Source: a bacterium 1XD21-70 (GTDB taxonomy: Bacteria > Bacillota > Clostridia > Lachnospirales > Lachnospiraceae). From it: a stretch of DNA of 64,000 nucleotides. The position numbers and the translations under genes were made by a program. The DNA is taken from positions 1 through 64,000 of the forward strand of contig RAYB01000002.1 in NCBI GenBank assembly GCA_003669055.1. Reading direction: 5' to 3'. Shown here in pieces: positions 38,682-62,130 of the stretch (within the stretch, counting starts at the first letter, position 1; each line of letters begins with the position of its first letter). The notes beneath the pieces were generated by a model. That model had not been told where the DNA came from, did no database searches, and saw only the letters and a program-made list of their open reading frames with translations.

Positions 38682-41243
38682 TTACCGATTCCGTAATTTT
38701 TCCTGCACAAAGCGATAAACCTTCTCCCCGCTCGTCCCGTCGTGGTTCGCGGCAACCGAACCGTAGGCCTTTAGCTGGCTCTGCTTATCAAAGGCATGGC
38801 CGGTGATATTCCCGTCAAGGAAATCTGCCAGGGAGTTAAAAGCGCCCTCCATGCAGCAATACTGCAGCCACTGGGATCCCTTTTGGAACCCGGCCTCCCC
38901 CCGCAGCAGATCCTCTTTTTCAAACCCGATCCGGATCTCCTCACTGCTGCCCGTTTTAAGCCCAATCTGGTAAAGCTTTCTGTCATAGGGGGAATACAAT
39001 AAATACTCTTCTCCTCCGGTACCCTCTGCCGGGCTTACAAAGGTCTCCCTTGACCAGGAAATATAATATCCGTTCTTTTCTTTTTCCTGCCTGCCAAAAC
39101 CAGGCTGCCATTCTGCCATCTTTCCGCTCTTCTTATCTAACCGGACAAACATATTTCCCCACCCCGGCGAAAAGTACACATAATCCCCGTAAAATGCAGC
39201 CCAGCCAAACAGCCGTTCCTCGCACTCATGCCCATGCACCGGGTCTTTGCCGGCTAACCCATCCGGGAAATTGCTGTATTCCTGGATACTGCCGGACTGC
39301 GGGTGCCATCTTACCACTGTCTTCCCCTCAAACGGCAGGCACCAGATCTCCCTGCCGTCCGAAACCAGCGCGCAGCGCCCTTTCGCCCCGGCGGCCTTAA
39401 CGGCCGCAACCTGCTGCTCTCCCGTAGCCGCATCCATCACCAGCACGCGGTTATCCGTCGGCGAAGCCAGATATAGCTTCCCGTCAAGCACACAATATCC
39501 GCCCATGCGCCGGTCCCCGTTTGCAGCAATGCCGGTATACACATCCCGGCCGCCCTCAAAATACCGGATTTCTCCTTTCACCGTATCATACCTTACCATT
39601 GCCGGGTACTGATTGGGGATCAAAAACAGATAGTCACCGCAGCCGATGGCTCCGTAAAATGCCCCCTGCTGCTCCACCCTCTGCTTCAGAGGAATCCTTT
39701 TCTTAATCCAGTTTCCGCCTTCTCCCTGCCTGTCCAGCACCAAAATATCCTGGGCATTGGCCGGGCACAGGTAATCCTCCCCGTTGACCCGCACCGTCCA
39801 GATATAGTAATCGCCCCTGGCATACTCTGACAAATCACAGCAATACTTATATTGGAAATCTTTCCCTGGTGAATGGTAAAGCTTGTTGCCCTGGGTTACC
39901 ATCCATTCATGGGTGCCATACACAAAGAATCCCCGGATTACTTCCCCGCGCCAGTCGTCCTCCTTTGGCGCAGTGTGGATATTATTGTTCAGCACAAACA
40001 GCGGCTTCCCTGCAATCCCAAACAAAGAAGTCACCGATGTGGCCGAATCCCCGATATAGGCATCCGAATGCACGATCGCATCCGTCATATCCGGCGAATC
40101 ATCATAGATCCCGAAATCCCCTGCCATAAAATACCGCTTAAGCGTATCATACACCGGCTTATACTGCGGCCTCATGCTTTCAAACGTGGATTCCAAAAGC
40201 GGGTGCGGCCGCCACAAGAGGCAGGCATCCTTCCTGCCCTCAAAGCAACGGAACACGTATTCCATCTTCTTTAGGAAACCTTCCGTGTTCCCCAGCATCC
40301 CATTGATGCTGGTATTATAAAAATATACTTTCCTCCCGGTAAGCTTCTCCCTCCAGGCCTCTGGCGGTGCCGGGGGATTCTTGCAGAGCCGGACCACCCG
40401 GTCGAACTTCGGCGAGCCGAATGCCATCAGCTTCTCCTGGGGCAATGCCTCATCAAAAAATTTGCGGTATTTCTCTGCCTGTATCACAATTAAGTCTGCC
40501 TGGTAATAAGCCGGGCACCTGCGCTGCCCCTCGCTCATGCCCCCGGATGTAGAATAATAAGGAATATATACTAAATAGTCGGTAAACCTTTTTAAATTGG
40601 AAGAATAAAAAAAAGGATGTACACTGGTCACATAGTTGCAGTTATCATATGGATTATGGATAAATACAGCGTCCGGATGGCGCTCCTCGAAATCATAATC
40701 CTCGTAGTTGGTAACCGGCACATACTCCGGGTATAACTCCCCCTCATAATGCATCTGCCCGAAATCCCCGCCCTGGTTCCTGTCAAAATAAGGGATTGGA
40801 ACCACATAGGCATCGCAGTCCTCGTCCGCCTGCGCTGCCATCCACACGCTCTCTAGGGAATCCCACATGGAAACTTTATAAGGAAGGAACACCACCTCAA
40901 GACGCTCCTGTATATCCTGCCTGATGCTGTTGTCGATAGGGATCAGCTGCTTTTTCAGCTGTTTATGTACTTTTGACGGATTCAAAGGCTGTTTCTGGGT
41001 CACCAAAGTATATACCTGGAATACCAGTTCACAGTAATCCTCCAGAAGCTTTACCGTCGCAAAGCCCTCTCCCTCTTCCGCCTCAATCATGGTTCCCAGC
41101 TGGATAGCGGCTTCCTGGCATTGCCCCAGCAGATCCAGTACCGTCCCCTCGTCCCGGGCTTCCATGGATTTCTTCACCGCGCCATGTGCCTGCTCCAGCA
41201 ACTGGATATATTCATTTGCTATCTTTTTCTGATATCGTCTCAT
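38682..41243 (-). CDS. CDP-glycerol glycerophosphotransferase-like domain fused to a beta-propeller-like region
   Basis: 853 residues, first gene of the locus, with AAGGA 8 bases before the ATG. Residues 1-110 are helical. Residues about 115-440 resemble TagB/TagF-type glycerophosphotransferases: RLEVVFLPYKVSMWDSLESV, VDPs-type substrate segments, KVYFYNTSINGML, CLLWRPHPLLESTFESM and DAYIGDSATSVTSLFGIAGK. The remaining 400 residues contain repeated units such as GDYLFLIPNQYPAMVRYD, DGKLYLASPTDNRVLVMD, GDYVYFSPGWGNMFVRLD and YLLYSPYDRKLYQIGL, spaced like propeller blades. The enzyme part would add a phospho-polyol to a carrier at the membrane; the propeller may bind the polymer. No signal peptide or membrane segment. 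Confidence 0.8.
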   Translation of the reverse strand: MRRYQKKIANEYIQLLEQAHGAVKKSMEARDEGTVLDLLGQCQEAAIQLGTMIEAEEGEGFATVKLLEDYCELVFQVYTLVTQKQPLNPSKVHKQLKKQLIPIDNSIRQDIQERLEVVFLPYKVSMWDSLESVWMAAQADEDCDAYVVPIPYFDRNQGGDFGQMHYEGELYPEYVPVTNYEDYDFEERHPDAVFIHNPYDNCNYVTSVHPFFYSSNLKRFTDYLVYIPYYSTSGGMSEGQRRCPAYYQADLIVIQAEKYRKFFDEALPQEKLMAFGSPKFDRVVRLCKNPPAPPEAWREKLTGRKVYFYNTSINGMLGNTEGFLKKMEYVFRCFEGRKDACLLWRPHPLLESTFESMRPQYKPVYDTLKRYFMAGDFGIYDDSPDMTDAIVHSDAYIGDSATSVTSLFGIAGKPLFVLNNNIHTAPKEDDWRGEVIRGFFVYGTHEWMVTQGNKLYHSPGKDFQYKYCCDLSEYARGDYYIWTVRVNGEDYLCPANAQDILVLDRQGEGGNWIKKRIPLKQRVEQQGAFYGAIGCGDYLFLIPNQYPAMVRYDTVKGEIRYFEGGRDVYTGIAANGDRRMGGYCVLDGKLYLASPTDNRVLVMDAATGEQQVAAVKAAGAKGRCALVSDGREIWCLPFEGKTVVRWHPQSGSIQEYSNFPDGLAGKDPVHGHECEERLFGWAAFYGDYVYFSPGWGNMFVRLDKKSGKMAEWQPGFGRQEKEKNGYYISWSRETFVSPAEGTGGEEYLLYSPYDRKLYQIGLKTGSSEEIRIGFEKEDLLRGEAGFQKGSQWLQYCCMEGAFNSLADFLDGNITGHAFDKQSQLKAYGSVAANHDGTSGEKVYRFVQEKLRNR

Positions 41244-41297
41244 ATCCGGTATCCTTTTCCTTTATGGTATGCCGCCTGCTCTTCTCAAACTTCTATT

Positions 41298-41326
41298 ACC
41301 TTACCATATCTTCCTCAATAATTCAA
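41298..41326 (-). promoter_or_regulatory. Putative SigA promoter of the surface-polymer locus
   Basis: On the minus strand TTGAAT (41321-41326) and TAAGGT (41298-41303) are 17 bases apart with a TGG extended -10. It lies about 55 bases before the first gene of the long minus-strand locus. Confidence 0.5.
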
Positions 41327-41554
41327 TGTATTTCCTTGGTAATCTAATGCAGCAGCACATATACTGGTGTACTGGCACATTCCTGTTTCGCCAAATGGCC
41401 TGCCCGAATTTCCGTCTGCCGCATTGGCCCTACTCAATAACGCCACCGCAGAGCCTGCCCCAGCGAAGCGAGGGTATCGCCCCCCGCCGCCTTGCAGACT
41501 GAAAATTCATTCTGCATCATTTGGCTGAAAGTAAATGTGTCAGTACACTAGAGC

Positions 41555-41706
41555 GTGTTTGAAAATCCATTCCCGCCATCTGCACGCCCCATTTTGCGGT
41601 ATCTTTGGGTCAAATTCAGGTTACATAGCCCACTATGAACCCTTCATTTGACTCAAACCTCCCACAAATTATGACGCACATCTGGCAGAAAGCAATTTTC
41701 AAACAC
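41555..41706. mobile_element. 152-bp MITE-like palindrome
   Basis: The ends are the exact 12-bp inverted repeat GTGTTTGAAAAT / ATTTTCAAACAC. The interior is an imperfect palindrome throughout; its centre GGTTACATAG-CCCA-CTATGAACC is a near-perfect hairpin flanked by GGGTCAAAT / ATTTGACTC. It has no coding capacity. These are the features of a non-autonomous miniature element. It lies between divergent promoters. A structural RNA is an alternative. Confidence 0.6.
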
Positions 41707-41847
41707 ACACTAACCTTGTATCAGTATATCGGCAATATTTCAAAAAAATTAACCATCCCCACAGCAAACGCAAGTTCCTGGCCATCTGCCATCCGTACCC
41801 TCCGCAAACAAGGGGACACGCACCTTATTCACGGAAGACAGTATTCA

Positions 41848-42088
41848 GCCCCCGAGGAAGGGAGGGAGCCGGGGCAGACTGCCGGGGATGTTTGACTTTT
41901 GCAGGGGTTTAGACGCCTTTCAGTTTCTGCATTTTGCGTTAAAACGAAAATATCCACTGTCTGAGCGCAGCGAGTTTGGATATTTTCGTTTTGCCTTTAG
42001 CAAAATTCAGGAACTTTAGGGCGTCTTAACCCCGAAACGGGAAAACATCCCCGGCAGTCTGCCCCGGCTCCCTCCCTTCCTCGGGGGC
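41848..42088. repeat. Giant hairpin element, copy 1
   Basis: Left arm 41848-41893 and right arm 42043-42088 are perfectly complementary over 46 bases. Inside, pairing continues through AGACGCC/GGCGTCT, ATTTTGC/GCAAAAT and AAAACGAAAATATCCA/TGGATATTTTCGTTTT up to a terminal loop at 41956-41977 that starts ACTGTCTGAGCG. The same 22-base loop and the same order of boxes occur in the element at 61021-61336, while the stems differ in sequence but still pair. No gene overlaps it. Confidence 0.85.
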
Positions 42089-42123
42089 GTACCTTCCTCG
42101 GAGGTATACCTCCCTGGTTCCTC

Positions 42124-42181: not shown

Positions 42182-43057
42182 ATGGATATCAACTATGAAC
42201 TATACAAAGTTTTCTACCATGTAGCCAACACCCTAAGCTTCTCCGAGGCCTCCAGGCAGCTTTTTATTTCCCAGTCTGCTGTCAGCCAGTCTGTCAAACT
42301 CCTGGAAAAAAAGCTAAACCAGCCCCTGTTTATCCGCAGCACCAAGCGGGTACAGCTGACACCCGAGGGCGAAATCCTCCTTAAGCACATTGAACCGGCC
42401 ATGAACCTGATCCGCCGCGGGGAAAACCAGCTTTTAGAGGCCAATACTTTAGGCGGAGGCCAGCTGCGTATCGGCGCCAGCGACACGATCTGCCGCTATT
42501 ACCTGGTCTCTTACTTAAAAGAATTCCACCGCAGGTACCCTAAGATCCACATTAAGGTCACCAACCAGACTTCCATTGCCTGCGCAAAACTCTTAGAATC
42601 CGGGCAGGTGGATTTCTGCGTCACCAACTATCCCAATTCCGGCCTCTCCAACACCCAGAATGTGCGGATCATACGCGAGTTCCATGATGTGTTCGTGGCA
42701 AATGAAGAATACCGGCACTTAAAAGGCCGCAAGATCCATTTAAAGGAACTGAAAGACTGCCCGATCCTGATGCTCGACCGCAAGAGCACCACCAGCGAGT
42801 TCCTGCACAGCCTATTCCAGCGCCACCAGCTGGACCTGGTTCCGGAGATCGAACTGAGCAGCAACGATTTGCTGATCGACCTCGCCCGGATCGGGCTGGG
42901 CATCGCCTTCGTCCCGGATTACTGTGTGCCGGGGAATATCCCCAACCTTTTTTTGCTGGACTTAAGCGAGCCGGTCCCTGCCCGCCAGCTGGTGGTCGCC
43001 TCCAACGAGAACCTGCCGCTGTCCCAGGCTGCAAAGCAGTTCATGGATATGCTATGA
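42182..43057 (+). CDS. LysR-family transcriptional regulator
   Basis: 291 residues starting at ATG with AAGGAG 8 bases upstream. The N-terminal winged HTH is typical: YHVANTLSFSEASRQLFISQ, then SAVSQSVKLLEKKLNQPLF. The linker helix and a periplasmic-binding-like effector domain follow (LRIGASDTICRYYLVSYLKE to the C-terminus). LysR proteins bind as tetramers and respond to a small ligand; their target is often the divergent gene, here the surface-polymer locus 940 bases away, but intervening palindromic elements make that uncertain. Its last 6 bases overlap the convergent helicase gene. Confidence 0.92.
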   Translation: MDINYELYKVFYHVANTLSFSEASRQLFISQSAVSQSVKLLEKKLNQPLFIRSTKRVQLTPEGEILLKHIEPAMNLIRRGENQLLEANTLGGGQLRIGASDTICRYYLVSYLKEFHRRYPKIHIKVTNQTSIACAKLLESGQVDFCVTNYPNSGLSNTQNVRIIREFHDVFVANEEYRHLKGRKIHLKELKDCPILMLDRKSTTSEFLHSLFQRHQLDLVPEIELSSNDLLIDLARIGLGIAFVPDYCVPGNIPNLFLLDLSEPVPARQLVVASNENLPLSQAAKQFMDML

Positions 43058-47686: not shown

Positions 47687-47757
47687 CAGGGGAAGAGGGG
47701 CTCGAACCCCCATCTACGGTTTTGGAGACCGCCGCTCTACCATTGAACTATTCCCCT
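47687..47757 (-). tRNA. tRNA-Trp (CCA anticodon)
   Basis: The minus strand folds as a 71-nt tRNA: acceptor stem AGGGGAA/TTCCCCT, D-arm GTTC-GAGC, anticodon loop CTCCAAA giving CCA, and T-arm GGGGGTTCGAGCCCC. The discriminator is G, as usual for tRNA-Trp. The 3' CCA is not encoded. Confidence 0.95.
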
Positions 47758-59745: not shown

Positions 59746-60873
59746 CTATTCAAAAATAACCCGGTCAAGTTCAGACAGGTTTTCCTTGTCATAAACCTTG
59801 GACGGACGGTTGATGACCTTCTCCACCTCTTTGCCATTGATGCAGAAATCCGTGACTGCATCCACAATGTCAAAACCGGTACCGTACTCGCCTACGTCAA
59901 TCGTAGCCCGCATTTCCCCGGCCTCGATCGCCGCAACGCCGTCCTTCGTACAGCCGAACCCTACCACCGCTATCTGGTCCAAAAGGTTCCTTTCTTTAAT
60001 CACAGTCAGCCCGCCCAGTACCATCTCATCATAAGGCCCATACAAAATTGTGATATCCGGATTCGAGGTAAGGATGCTCTCTGTCACGCTCTGCCCCTTT
60101 TCCCTGGTCCACTCAGCCGTCTGGGATGCGACAACCGGAAGGTTCCCGTTCCCCTCCAGAGCCTCATAAAACCCATCCATCCTCTTGGTATTGACGACAC
60201 CGGCATAGCCCTCTAAGACTGCGATTTTCTGTGGGTCTGCACCCAGGTTCTCATTGATCCAGGCACCGATCTCCCGCCCGGCCTGTTCCTGGTCATACCC
60301 GATGCTGGAGACATAATAGATATTTTTCTCATTGATCTCCGTCATATTAAATAAGAACACCGGGATATCCGCCTCTGCCGCCTCCCTCAGATACGGCAGC
60401 ATGGACTCGTCCGACTCCGTTGCCAGCGCAATCGCATCCACCTTCTGCTGGATCATCGTCTCTAAGATATTGCCCTGCTCTGTGATGGTGCTGGCATTGC
60501 TAGAAGGCGCCTGGACAATCAATTCAATGTTATCGCCTGTCTCCGCAATATGCTTCTTCGCTCCGTTGATGGTCATGGTATATGCGGTATTCATCGTCAC
60601 AGGAATCAGCCCCAGCTTGATCTTGCGGCCTGTAATCTGCCTAGGCTTCACCGCATACTCCTCCTGGCCCGCTGCTTCTCCGCTCTCATTCCCCTCCGAT
60701 TCCCCGCTCTCCTCTTCCTTCCCTCCTGCCTCTGTCCCCTTGGCCTCTGCTGCCTCTAAAGAAGCCGCCTCCGTCCCCGCCGGGCTCTCCGCCTTCTGGT
60801 TCGACGTAGCACATCCCCCCAAAGCCACCGCCAACAATACAGCCGCCATCCCCATACCAACTACTTTTCTCAT
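59746..60873 (-). CDS. Sugar-binding lipoprotein (RbsB type) of the ABC importer
   Basis: 375 residues. The signal peptide ends at a lipobox (VALGGC), followed by an Ala/Glu/Gly-rich linker of about 50 residues that would span the cell wall. The binding domain is of the Peripla_BP_4 type: RKIKLGLIPVTMNTAYTMTI, QKVDAIALATESDESMLPYL, LEGYAGVVNTKRMDGFYEAL and VGFGCTKDGVAAIEAGEMRA. GGGAGG lies 7 bases before the ATG. It is the first gene of the operon and delivers the unknown sugar to the permease. Confidence 0.92.
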   Translation of the reverse strand: MRKVVGMGMAAVLLAVALGGCATSNQKAESPAGTEAASLEAAEAKGTEAGGKEEESGESEGNESGEAAGQEEYAVKPRQITGRKIKLGLIPVTMNTAYTMTINGAKKHIAETGDNIELIVQAPSSNASTITEQGNILETMIQQKVDAIALATESDESMLPYLREAAEADIPVFLFNMTEINEKNIYYVSSIGYDQEQAGREIGAWINENLGADPQKIAVLEGYAGVVNTKRMDGFYEALEGNGNLPVVASQTAEWTREKGQSVTESILTSNPDITILYGPYDEMVLGGLTVIKERNLLDQIAVVGFGCTKDGVAAIEAGEMRATIDVGEYGTGFDIVDAVTDFCINGKEVEKVINRPSKVYDKENLSELDRVIFE

Positions 60874-60930
60874 AAATTACCTCCCTCATTTGTCGTATTC
60901 GCTGCTATCATCACCGTGTTTCCATAAAAT

Positions 60931-60959
60931 ATTATACATTCTACACAACATCCCGGCAA
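60931..60959 (-). promoter_or_regulatory. SigA-type promoter of the sugar ABC operon
   Basis: On the minus strand TTGCCG (60954-60959), 17-base spacer, TATAAT (60931-60936). About 55 bases before the first gene of the operon. I see no clear cre site. Confidence 0.7.
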
Positions 60960-61020
60960 TGCTACAGATTTTTGAATTAGTATGGTAATTTCATTCTTTC
61001 CTTCCCAAGCGTAAACAAAG

Positions 61021-61336
61021 CCATCCGGTTCCGCGCCCTGTAGGGGAAGGCCAGCCTGCGTAAGAAACGGGCGGCGCCTGGGTGGGAAGCAGATGGGTTG
61101 TTCTGCATTTGCAGGGATCTTAGGAGTTCTTCGCTTTCCGGATTTTGCGTTGAAAGGAAAATGCATACTGTCTGAGCGCAGCGAGTTTATGCATTTTTCT
61201 TTCGCTTCTAGCAAAATACGGAAAGTTTAGAACTCCTTAATCCCGAAACCGCAGAACAACCCATCTGCTTCCCACCCAGGCGCCGCCCGTTTCTTACGCA
61301 GGCCAGCCTTCTCCTACAGGGCGCGGAACCGGATGG
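61021..61336. repeat. Giant hairpin element, copy 2
   Basis: Left arm 61021-61106 and right arm 61251-61336 are complementary at 83 of 86 positions. Pairing continues inward (AGGAGTTC with GAACTCCT, ATTTTGC with GCAAAAT, ATGCATA with TATGCAT) to the 22-base loop at 61167-61188, identical to that of the 41848-42088 element. The stem sequences are unrelated to those of copy 1, but positions and shared boxes (TTGCAGGG, TTTTGCGTT, TAGCAAAAT, CCCGAAAC) are the same. It begins 17 bases after the sigG stop. Confidence 0.85.
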
Positions 61337-61353: not shown

Positions 61354-62130
61354 TTAATTCAGGTAATTCCTCATACTCTTCAGCGCATTTTTCTCCAGGC
61401 GCGACACCTGTGCCTGGCTGATATGGATTTCCTCCGCCACCTCAGTCTGGGTCTTCCCTTCAAAGAAACGCAGGTCAATGATGTGGCGTTCCCGTTGGGG
61501 AAGGCGGTCCATGGCCTCCCTTAAGGAAATCTCCTCCACCCAGTTTTCCTCCAGGTTTTTCTTATCGCTGATCTGGTCCATCACATAGAGGGGGTCTCCC
61601 CCATCGGTATAGATCGGTTCGTAAAGGCTGACCGGGCTCTGGATGGCATCCAGGGCATAGGTGATCTCTTCCTTGCTGATCCCAATCTCATTGGCAATCT
61701 CCATCAGCGTTGGCTCCTTGGCATTTTTCCGCATCAGGCCTTCCTTGGCATAGATCGCCTTGTAGGCAGTGTCCCGCAAAGAACGGCTGACACGGATAGA
61801 ATTATTGTCCCGCAAATAACGCCGCACCTCACCCATGATCATCGGCACGGCATAGGTGGAAAAACGGACATTCTGCGTAATATCGAAGTTATCAATGGCT
61901 TTAATGAGGCCGATGCATCCAATCTGGAATAAGTCATCCACATTTTCATTGCTACCGGAAAACCGCTGGATTACACTGAGAACCAGGCGCAGGTTCCCCT
62001 TGATATACTGTTCCCTGGCTTCCATGTCGCCGTCAAGGATCCTTCTGAACAGTTCATCCTTTTCCTCATTTGTCAAAAGCGGGAGTTTTGCCGTATTGAC
62101 CCCACAAATCTCAACCTTATAACCAGCCAT
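61354..62130 (-). CDS. sigG: RNA polymerase sporulation sigma factor SigG
   Basis: 258 residues. It begins with YKVEICGVNTAKLPLLTNEE, the conserved SigG leader. Region 2 contains LRLVLSVIQRFSGSNENVDD and LFQIGCIGLIKAIDNF, region 3 RVSRSLRDTAYKAIYAKEGL, and region 4 ends in IHISQAQVSRLEKNALKSMR. SigG directs gene expression in the forespore after engulfment in endospore formers. GGAGG lies 8 bases before the ATG. spoIIG genes (sigE, spoIIGA), which often lie upstream, are absent here. An inverted repeat (62153-62162 with 62189-62198) lies upstream of the gene. Confidence 0.95.
   Translation of the reverse strand: MAGYKVEICGVNTAKLPLLTNEEKDELFRRILDGDMEAREQYIKGNLRLVLSVIQRFSGSNENVDDLFQIGCIGLIKAIDNFDITQNVRFSTYAVPMIMGEVRRYLRDNNSIRVSRSLRDTAYKAIYAKEGLMRKNAKEPTLMEIANEIGISKEEITYALDAIQSPVSLYEPIYTDGGDPLYVMDQISDKKNLEENWVEEISLREAMDRLPQRERHIIDLRFFEGKTQTEVAEEIHISQAQVSRLEKNALKSMRNYLN

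What the first reader, a model, noticed from the sequence alone, without database searches (positions are those of the whole stretch)
41848..42088. Pair of giant hairpins with one conserved loop and covarying inner stems (copy 1)
Seen directly: this 241-bp element and the 316-bp element at 61021-61336 share an identical 22-nt terminal loop, the same order of short boxes (TTGCAGGG, TTTTGCGTT, TAGCAAAAT, CCCGAAAC) and the same orientation. The intervening stems differ in sequence yet pair within each copy (AGACGCC/GGCGTCT here, AGGAGTTC/GAACTCCT there; ATATCCA/TGGATAT here, ATGCATA/TATGCAT there). The outer arms are unrelated between copies but 46/46 and 83/86 complementary. Inference: selection, or the copying mechanism, maintains the fold and not the arm sequence. 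This could be a structured RNA family, a foldback mobile element mobilised in trans, or a DNA structure recognised by a protein.
Basis: partly seen in the sequence, partly recalled or inferred. Interest (0 to 1): 0.78.

Follow-up and report, generated by a model that had tools for sequence, protein, structure and literature searches.

The report
Mobile hairpin with widely shared cap
Two long DNA hairpins in a gut bacterium belong to a family of small, apparently mobile elements whose 21-letter tip recurs in widely separated bacterial groups, while their arms drift quickly but stay matched, apparently because one arm is copied onto the other.

Summary
Copies 1 (41848-42088) and 2 (61021-61336) are hairpins sharing a 22-nt loop and box order, with complementary but different arms. 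The genome holds 21 copies; 9 of 24 genus genomes, this one included, have any, up to 137. Sporadic bursts, a site without the element in one sister genome, and terminal repeats with 8-11 nt target duplications in 8 of 20 fully delimited copies of relatives point to a MITE-like mobile element. The same repeats bound IS4-family transposase genes at 4 places in the genus. Window copies lack those ends, so their mobiliser is unproven.

Covariation is real. But 23 nearest-relative pairs show 130 matched double changes against 99 singles, where about 7 doubles are expected from independent mutation. Arm-to-arm copying explains this better than compensatory selection alone.

The surprise is the cap CTGTCTGAGCGNAGCGAGTTT: exact matches in at least 120 stretches from several phyla (capped), 85 of 93 tested on arms of at least 15 nt, none in the viral collection. 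Its function is open; a wobble bias, not seen in every set, suggests one strand folds.

The parts
41848..42088 (+). hairpin element copy 1 (241 bp; strand named is that of the CTGTCTGAGCG cap)
41848..41893 (+). 5' outer arm of copy 1, 46 of 46 complementary to 42043-42088
41956..41977 (+). 22-nt cap of copy 1 (ACTGTCTGAGCGCAGCGAGTTT)
42043..42088 (+). 3' outer arm of copy 1
41755..42117 (.). 363-bp segment present here and replaced by 5 bp in sister genome G018 (contig C87), with both immediate flanks kept; contains copy 1 plus 93 bp 5' and 29 bp 3'
61021..61336 (+). hairpin element copy 2 (316 bp)
61021..61106 (+). 5' outer arm of copy 2, 83 of 86 Watson-Crick with 61251-61336
61167..61188 (+). 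22-nt cap of copy 2
61251..61336 (+). 3' outer arm of copy 2

Best explanation
It is a non-autonomous, MITE-like mobile element: a long foldback hairpin too short to carry a transposase, moved in trans through its ends. In close relatives the ends are CAATGTCAKTWAGTTAAG inverted repeats, with 8-11 nt target duplications in a part of the copies, and the same repeats bound IS4-family transposase genes in the genus (shown). The copies in this window have lost, or never had, those ends, so their own mobiliser is inferred. The arms stay complementary mainly because one arm is occasionally copied onto the other (template switching in the extruded hairpin, 'quasipalindrome correction'), so both arms change together (the pattern is shown, the mechanism inferred). 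The cap and the asymmetric internal loops largely escape homogenisation and are presumably selected as a recognition or folding signal of one strand (inferred).
For: Copy number 21, 66, 137, or 0-4 among 24 genus genomes. Direct repeats of at least 8 nt exactly at the ends in 8 of 20 elements with both ends recognised (62 elements of G012 and G017 examined), against 0.16 on average, at most 1, with swapped flanks. The same TIR flanks IS4-family genes on both sides at G003:C12, G005:C70, G019:C34 (broken) and G000:C58 (broken remnant in the window's genome): 4 of 22 IS4-family places found. G018 lacks 41755-42117 between matching flanks. Doubles 130 against singles 99 in 23 nearest pairs, about 7.2 doubles expected; 39 against 1.3 expected in the 13 closest pairs; 63 of 130 doubles are transversional and have no wobble path. 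L303 has the 5' linker on both sides and L295 has linkers swapped relative to the core, where 52 of 74 printed elements show the usual arrangement. Copy 1 and its G017 sibling: 6 double-kept, 2 single-kept, 3 broken among 89 pairs. Ralstonia set: 15 doubles, 1.0 expected. No bias relative to neighbouring ORFs. Template switching that homogenises arms and inverts spacers is published (PMC8604942, PMC8794818; abstract and passages).
Against: The window genome's copies show neither the CAATGTC ends nor a convincing TSD (a 9-nt candidate in L009 only). 12 of 20 delimited relatives' copies have no such repeat. G012 has no NF033592 match and G017 only four below the cut-off. Some TIR pairs in G017 hold no cap (L357), so the cap is not needed for that end type to spread. 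The G018 difference could be a deletion there; it includes 93 bp 5' and 29 bp 3' of the hairpin, and the intergenic stretch further upstream differs too. Double changes could in part come from recombination between copies that spans the loop. Outside the genus singles outnumber doubles (33 to 15 in Ralstonia, 61 to 12 in a mixed set), although doubles still exceed expectation. The wobble bias is not explained by dsDNA transposition. Pair counts rest on the fold of one member and one alignment path.
Confidence: 0.7

Rival explanations
1. A structured non-coding RNA family: the cap strand is transcribed, the RNA hairpin with its cap is functional, and covariation reflects selection on the RNA.
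For: Strong covariation. G.U beats A.C on the cap strand: 29 to 10 in the core alignment of this genome's copies and 67 to 21 in 75 non-redundant loci from elsewhere. Conserved asymmetric internal-loop boxes.
Against: No Rfam match above the gathering score in the window or in 14 loci from elsewhere, tRNA apart. No bias relative to neighbouring ORFs. No promoter-like match directly at the 5' end of either hairpin (4 and 1 consensus matches in the two regions, 1.5 and 0.7 expected). Sporadic bursts and absence from 15 of 24 genus genomes. Far more double changes than independent mutation allows. With isolated mismatches only, the core bias of this genome's copies vanishes (15 to 12) and outer arms show no significant bias (39 to 29).
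Confidence: 0.13
2. A single-stranded-DNA hairpin element moved by an HUH/Y1 transposase, like REP/REPIN elements with RAYT.
For: One strand appears to fold; divergent close pairs of copies recur in Ralstonia G330 and in the genus.
Against: PF01797 is not found in G012, which has 66 copies (assembly about 91% complete). Only 1 of 60 Y1 loci has a cap within the fetched flank. Target duplications are expected of DDE rather than HUH transposition (recalled).
Confidence: 0.08
3. Each insertion makes new arms by copying flanking host DNA into an inverted copy, so arms are locus-specific.
For: Arms differ strongly between copies of the window genome.
Against: Arms of copies in G017 are homologous to each other (0.705 against 0.479 shuffled), and copy 1 shares arms with a G017 copy. 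L288 alone looks like an extended or nested arm.
Confidence: 0.04
4. Assembly or palindrome artefact.
For: A number of copies lie at contig ends.
Against: Cap hits occur in many independent assemblies, two titled complete chromosomes (NZ_AP019846.1, NZ_CP101417.1), and most window-genome copies lie inside contigs.
Confidence: 0.01

Closest known systems
Bacterial MITEs (general)
   Same: Short, non-coding, inverted ends, target duplications, transposase in trans, hairpin-forming, intergenic
   Different: Arms diverge in a matched way between copies, and a 21-nt cap recurs across phyla on unlike stems, with different terminal repeats where these could be seen
IS4-family insertion sequences (NF033592 / PF01609)
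   Same: The CAATGTC terminal repeat of the relatives' copies bounds IS4-family genes in the genus
   Different: No transposase gene inside; the window copies lack this repeat
REP / REPIN elements with RAYT transposases (recalled; listing only)
   Same: Intergenic palindromes, inverted pairs, strand-specific folding suspected
   Different: No association with Y1_Tnp found; target duplications present; far longer stems
Template-switch (quasipalindrome) evolution of hairpins, PMC8794818 and PMC8604942 (abstract and passages)
   Same: Instant double changes, arm homogenisation and spacer inversion
   Different: Described there for RNA genes and yeast coding sequence; here it appears to run along whole mobile-element arms

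Membership tests
MITE | short, no transposase gene | tested here: met
   241 and 316 bp; only short ORFs overlap the hairpins (86 aa at 41635-41895 and 114 aa at 60870-61214)
MITE | terminal inverted repeats | tested here: inconclusive
   Present in G017 and G012 copies; in window copies only the hairpin arms themselves
MITE | target-site duplication | tested here: inconclusive
   8 of 20 delimited relatives' copies; none convincing among the 21 copies of the window genome
MITE | occupied and empty sites | tested here: inconclusive
   One site: G018 lacks 41755-42117 between matching flanks; deletion in G018 not excluded; copy 2 could not be tested
IS4-mobilised element | same TIR as an IS4-family insertion sequence | tested here: inconclusive
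   Met for relatives' copies, not met for the window copies
IS4-mobilised element | cognate transposase in the same genome | tested here: inconclusive
   Only a broken remnant with these ends in G000; none over the cut-off in G012 or G017
REP/REPIN with RAYT | linked Y1_Tnp gene | tested here: not met
   1 of 60 Y1 loci has a cap nearby; none found in G012
Known Rfam RNA family | score above gathering threshold | tested here: not met
   window: only a tRNA; 14 loci from other genomes: 0
Structured RNA | transcription and RNA-level function | not testable with these tools
   no RNA data

The most novel reading that the evidence does not exclude
The cap hairpin is an independent selfish module, found from Firmicutes to Bacteroidetes, Proteobacteria, a Leptotrichia chromosome, and Nitrospirae and Thermotoga MAGs, that has been taken up by several unrelated transposon end-types (CAATGTC ends like those of IS4-family elements in Lachnospiraceae; GTAACTATTCAGCT ends with 8-bp direct repeats in a Proteobacteria MAG). 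Its cap would be read in single-stranded form by some widely conserved host factor, and its arms are renewed by template switching.
Probability: 0.3. Interest if true: 0.9.

Novelty: new variant of a known kind. Interest (0 to 1): 0.72.

Why it matters
Covariation is commonly taken as proof of functional RNA structure. This family looks like a natural counter-example with many copies: the arms co-vary because they appear to be copied onto each other, and this can be counted copy by copy. Separately, a 21-nt motif kept exactly in distant bacterial phyla on unlike stems, and with no exact match in the viral collection searched, points to a widely shared recognition event for which I found no description, and which can be tested biochemically.

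Tried and rejected
Y1/RAYT transposase as driver: genus and cross-phylum searches gave no linkage. A recurrent neighbouring gene within 1.8 kb: the 25 most widespread clusters were translations of the repeats themselves or ordinary genes, none shared widely. Rfam at relaxed E-value on 4 loci: mostly miRNA-type hits below their gathering scores, plus a real cobalamin riboswitch in L013. Cis-regulatory role: no orientation bias, by crude ORF calls. Plasmid carriage: 3 partial hits for one Ralstonia copy. Energy of the cap alone: not unusual by nearest-neighbour DNA parameters, so the idea that GCGNAGC forms an unusually stable GNA mini-hairpin rests on recall. An empty site for copy 2: the sigma-70-type gene to its right has a long match in 21 of the 23 other genus genomes (not G009, G012), but the left flank matched in one genome only, on another contig; my notebook entry saying 'all 23' is wrong.

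Listings (20 papers hold the 12-mer, 19 listed, titles unrelated, none opened; 0; 1, unrelated) showed no description of this element; only open-licence PMC text is searched. A Thiomargarita MITE paper (PMC4853749, passages) is a parallel only.

Limits: nearest pairs come from 74 of 86 collected elements. The 86 are a sample: 41 of 137 from G017, 21 of 66 from G012, 21 of 21 from G000, 3 others. The 93 loops leave out hits near locus ends; its random-position control has median arm 0 but 95th percentile 39 and maximum 188, perhaps because random points fall near other palindromes. The 75 loci drop arms under 25 and duplicates. Part's output was cut. The 3'-hairpin motifs were chosen after looking at the sequences.

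Full report
WHAT IS THERE. Both hairpins are real and as described. Copy 1 ends 93 bp before the start codon of a LysR-type regulator (42182-43057, PF00126 and PF03466), in the intergenic region divergent from an 853-aa ORF on the minus strand (38682-41243; no Pfam family). Copy 2 lies between a 375-aa ORF (59746-60873, minus) and the 3' end of a sigma-70-type factor gene (61354-62130, minus). The cap strand is + in both.

FAMILY IN THE GENOME AND GENUS. The loop with up to 2 mismatches occurs 21 times in the window's genome; the reversed control pattern 0 times. In the genus, 9 of 24 genomes match, G000 included: 137 copies in G017, 66 in G012, 21 in G000, 1-4 in six more, none in 15. With an exact N-pattern, 12 of 299 genomes of the family sample match, G000 included. 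Anatomy of the window-genome copies, by eye: 5' (A)CAGCC, an arm, TTGCATTTGCAGGGATTTTAGG..., GCGTTGA, the cap, TTAGCAAAA...CCCGAAACC, the second arm, GGCGTACCCCC.

COVARIATION. On an alignment of 20 of the 21 copies (one is cut by a contig end), 39 of 65 predicted pairs have double changes; 182 double-change cells against 49 in shuffles; covariation score 0.411 against 0.148; sliding the partner by one base drops pairing from 95% to 49-54%. The structure was predicted from the same alignment.

WHY THE ARMS MATCH. Of 86 collected elements, 74 had enough flank, and 23 non-overlapping nearest-relative pairs were formed (80-98% identical). At Watson-Crick positions: 1949 unchanged, 130 matched double changes, 4 unmatched doubles, 99 singles (33 G.U, 25 A.C, 41 other). 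Independent mutation predicts about 7.2 doubles; in the 13 closest pairs there are 39 against 1.3. Selection against broken pairs can only lower the number of independent doubles, so the two arms seem to change together. 63 of 130 doubles are transversional and cannot pass through a wobble. 105 of 130 lie more than 60 nt from the cap (positions, recounted). Of 74 elements printed, 52 show the usual linkers (5' CAGC, 3' GTACGC when read as reverse complement); L303 carries CAGC on both sides, L295 has the two swapped relative to the core, L012 also matched CAGC on both sides but inside its long arm, and the rest were not resolved. The first two fit the arm homogenisation and spacer inversion described for template switching in PMC8604942 (abstract and passages) and argued for RNA hairpins in PMC8794818 (abstract and passages). 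Recombination between copies across the loop remains a possible source of some doubles. Outside the genus the excess is smaller: Ralstonia 15 doubles (1.0 expected) with 33 singles in 11 pairs; a mixed set 12 doubles (2.2 expected) with 61 singles in 10 pairs.

HOW IT MOVES. In G017 and G012 many copies extend to CAATGTCAKTWAGTTAAG inverted repeats. Of 62 elements from these genomes, 20 had both ends recognised, and 8 of these have an exact direct repeat of 8-11 nt at the ends; swapping flanks gives 0.16 on average, at most 1. An NF033592 search of ten genus genomes found 22 places; at 4 of them the repeat lies on both sides of the gene: G003:C12 and G005:C70 (intact frames), G019:C34 (broken) and G000:C58 (broken remnant in the window's own genome), and a further G005 gene has it on one side before the contig ends. 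Two others have a short TIR pair nearby that does not bound the gene. Against this: G012 has no such gene and G017 only four matches below the cut-off; some TIR pairs hold no cap (L357); and the window genome's copies carry neither these ends nor convincing duplications. For copy 1, sister genome G018 has both flanks (100% over 41717-41754, then resuming at 42118) with 5 bp in place of 41755-42117; by eye G012's right flank is similarly short. Insertion here is therefore more likely than deletion there, but the missing segment is 122 bp longer than the hairpin, and the stretch 41264-41716, which holds two other repeat families, is also shorter in G018. Copy 1 has a sibling in G017 (205 of 229 bases identical) with 6 matched doubles, 2 single-kept and 3 broken among 89 compared pairs, the broken ones next to or in a poly-C run of the relative.

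BEYOND THE GENUS. Of 93 loops with enough flank, 85 sit on arms of at least 15 nt (median 53). Prevalence is low: 1 of 150 in a sample of the Ralstonia genome's phylum (that genome itself, 49 copies) and 2 of 99 in the Parabacteroides genome's phylum, the centre included. The viral collection has no exact match. A second box, GCGTTAA, is in the 5' arm of 15 of 108 loops against 0 in the 3' arm, 9 of the 15 with a stem-matched TAGC. A 3'-side TTACTTT-type motif, chosen by inspection, lies beside 27 of 108 against 1 on the 5' side. Ends differ where visible: L060, L081 and L154 of one Proteobacteria MAG have 8-nt direct repeats around GTAACTATTCAGCT, the fourth cap locus of that MAG (L100) was not flagged, and single cases are L128 and L162. 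Over all 93, direct repeats of 9 nt occur in 12 against 5.0 expected and of 8 nt in 28 against 16.9; many of the listed ones are not at element ends.

WHICH STRAND. Mismatched pairs lean to G.U over A.C on the cap strand: 29 to 10 in the core alignment of this genome's copies and 67 to 21 over 75 loci from elsewhere. Counting only isolated mismatches genome by genome, the core bias is significant for G012 (14 to 1) and not for G000 (15 to 12) or G017 (22 to 13); outer arms show no significant bias (39 to 29; G000 13 to 5, G012 14 to 11, G017 20 to 16). The 5' arm is richer in G than C in 54 of 75 loci, 16 the other way. This hints that one strand, as RNA or single-stranded DNA, folds and matters. 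There is no bias in orientation relative to neighbouring ORFs (58, 14, 34 and 6 loci in four sets; crude ORF calls).

VERDICT. A mobile hairpin element with arms in concerted evolution is the best reading. A structured RNA passenger is possible. The cap's function is open.

Noticed in passing
window 41363-41551: A different repeat, about 189 bp, with further copies in the own genome (for example C56:23586-23776, C43, C79), upstream of copy 1; the stretch is shorter in G018.
   Followed up: no
window 41547-41712: A third, palindromic repeat (self-match on the opposite strand) with many copies in G017 and G004; its ends resemble GTGTTTGAAAAT / ATTTTCAAACAC. Copy 1 therefore sits beside two other repeat families.
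   Followed up: no
G017 element flanks (L253, L259, L263, L266 and others): GTTACTGTTCAC recurs just outside the CAATGTC ends, in several copies on both sides, and ACTGTTCAC also flanks the G003 and G019 IS4-family elements; it may be an extended terminal repeat or a favoured target, and was not resolved.
   Followed up: partly
L357 1501-1757 (G017:C2:94055-94311): A pair of CAATGTC-type ends about 240 bp apart with no cap between them: a cap-less relative with the same ends.
   Followed up: partly
Ralstonia G330, L391-L399: Copies recur as divergent minus/plus pairs 213-294 bp apart, in L394 around what looks like a terminator hairpin.
   Followed up: partly
L236 (Pasteurellaceae bacterium Pebbles2): The only Y1_Tnp locus of 60 with a cap nearby, about 1 kb away.
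   Followed up: no
L288 (G017): The 5' arm contains GGTACGC, normally the 3' linker, as if one hairpin were nested in or extended from another.
   Followed up: partly
L013 800-988 minus strand (G000:C80): Cobalamin riboswitch (RF00174, 112.6 bits) some 400 bp from a hairpin copy.
   Followed up: no
window 47687-47757 minus strand: tRNA gene.
   Followed up: no
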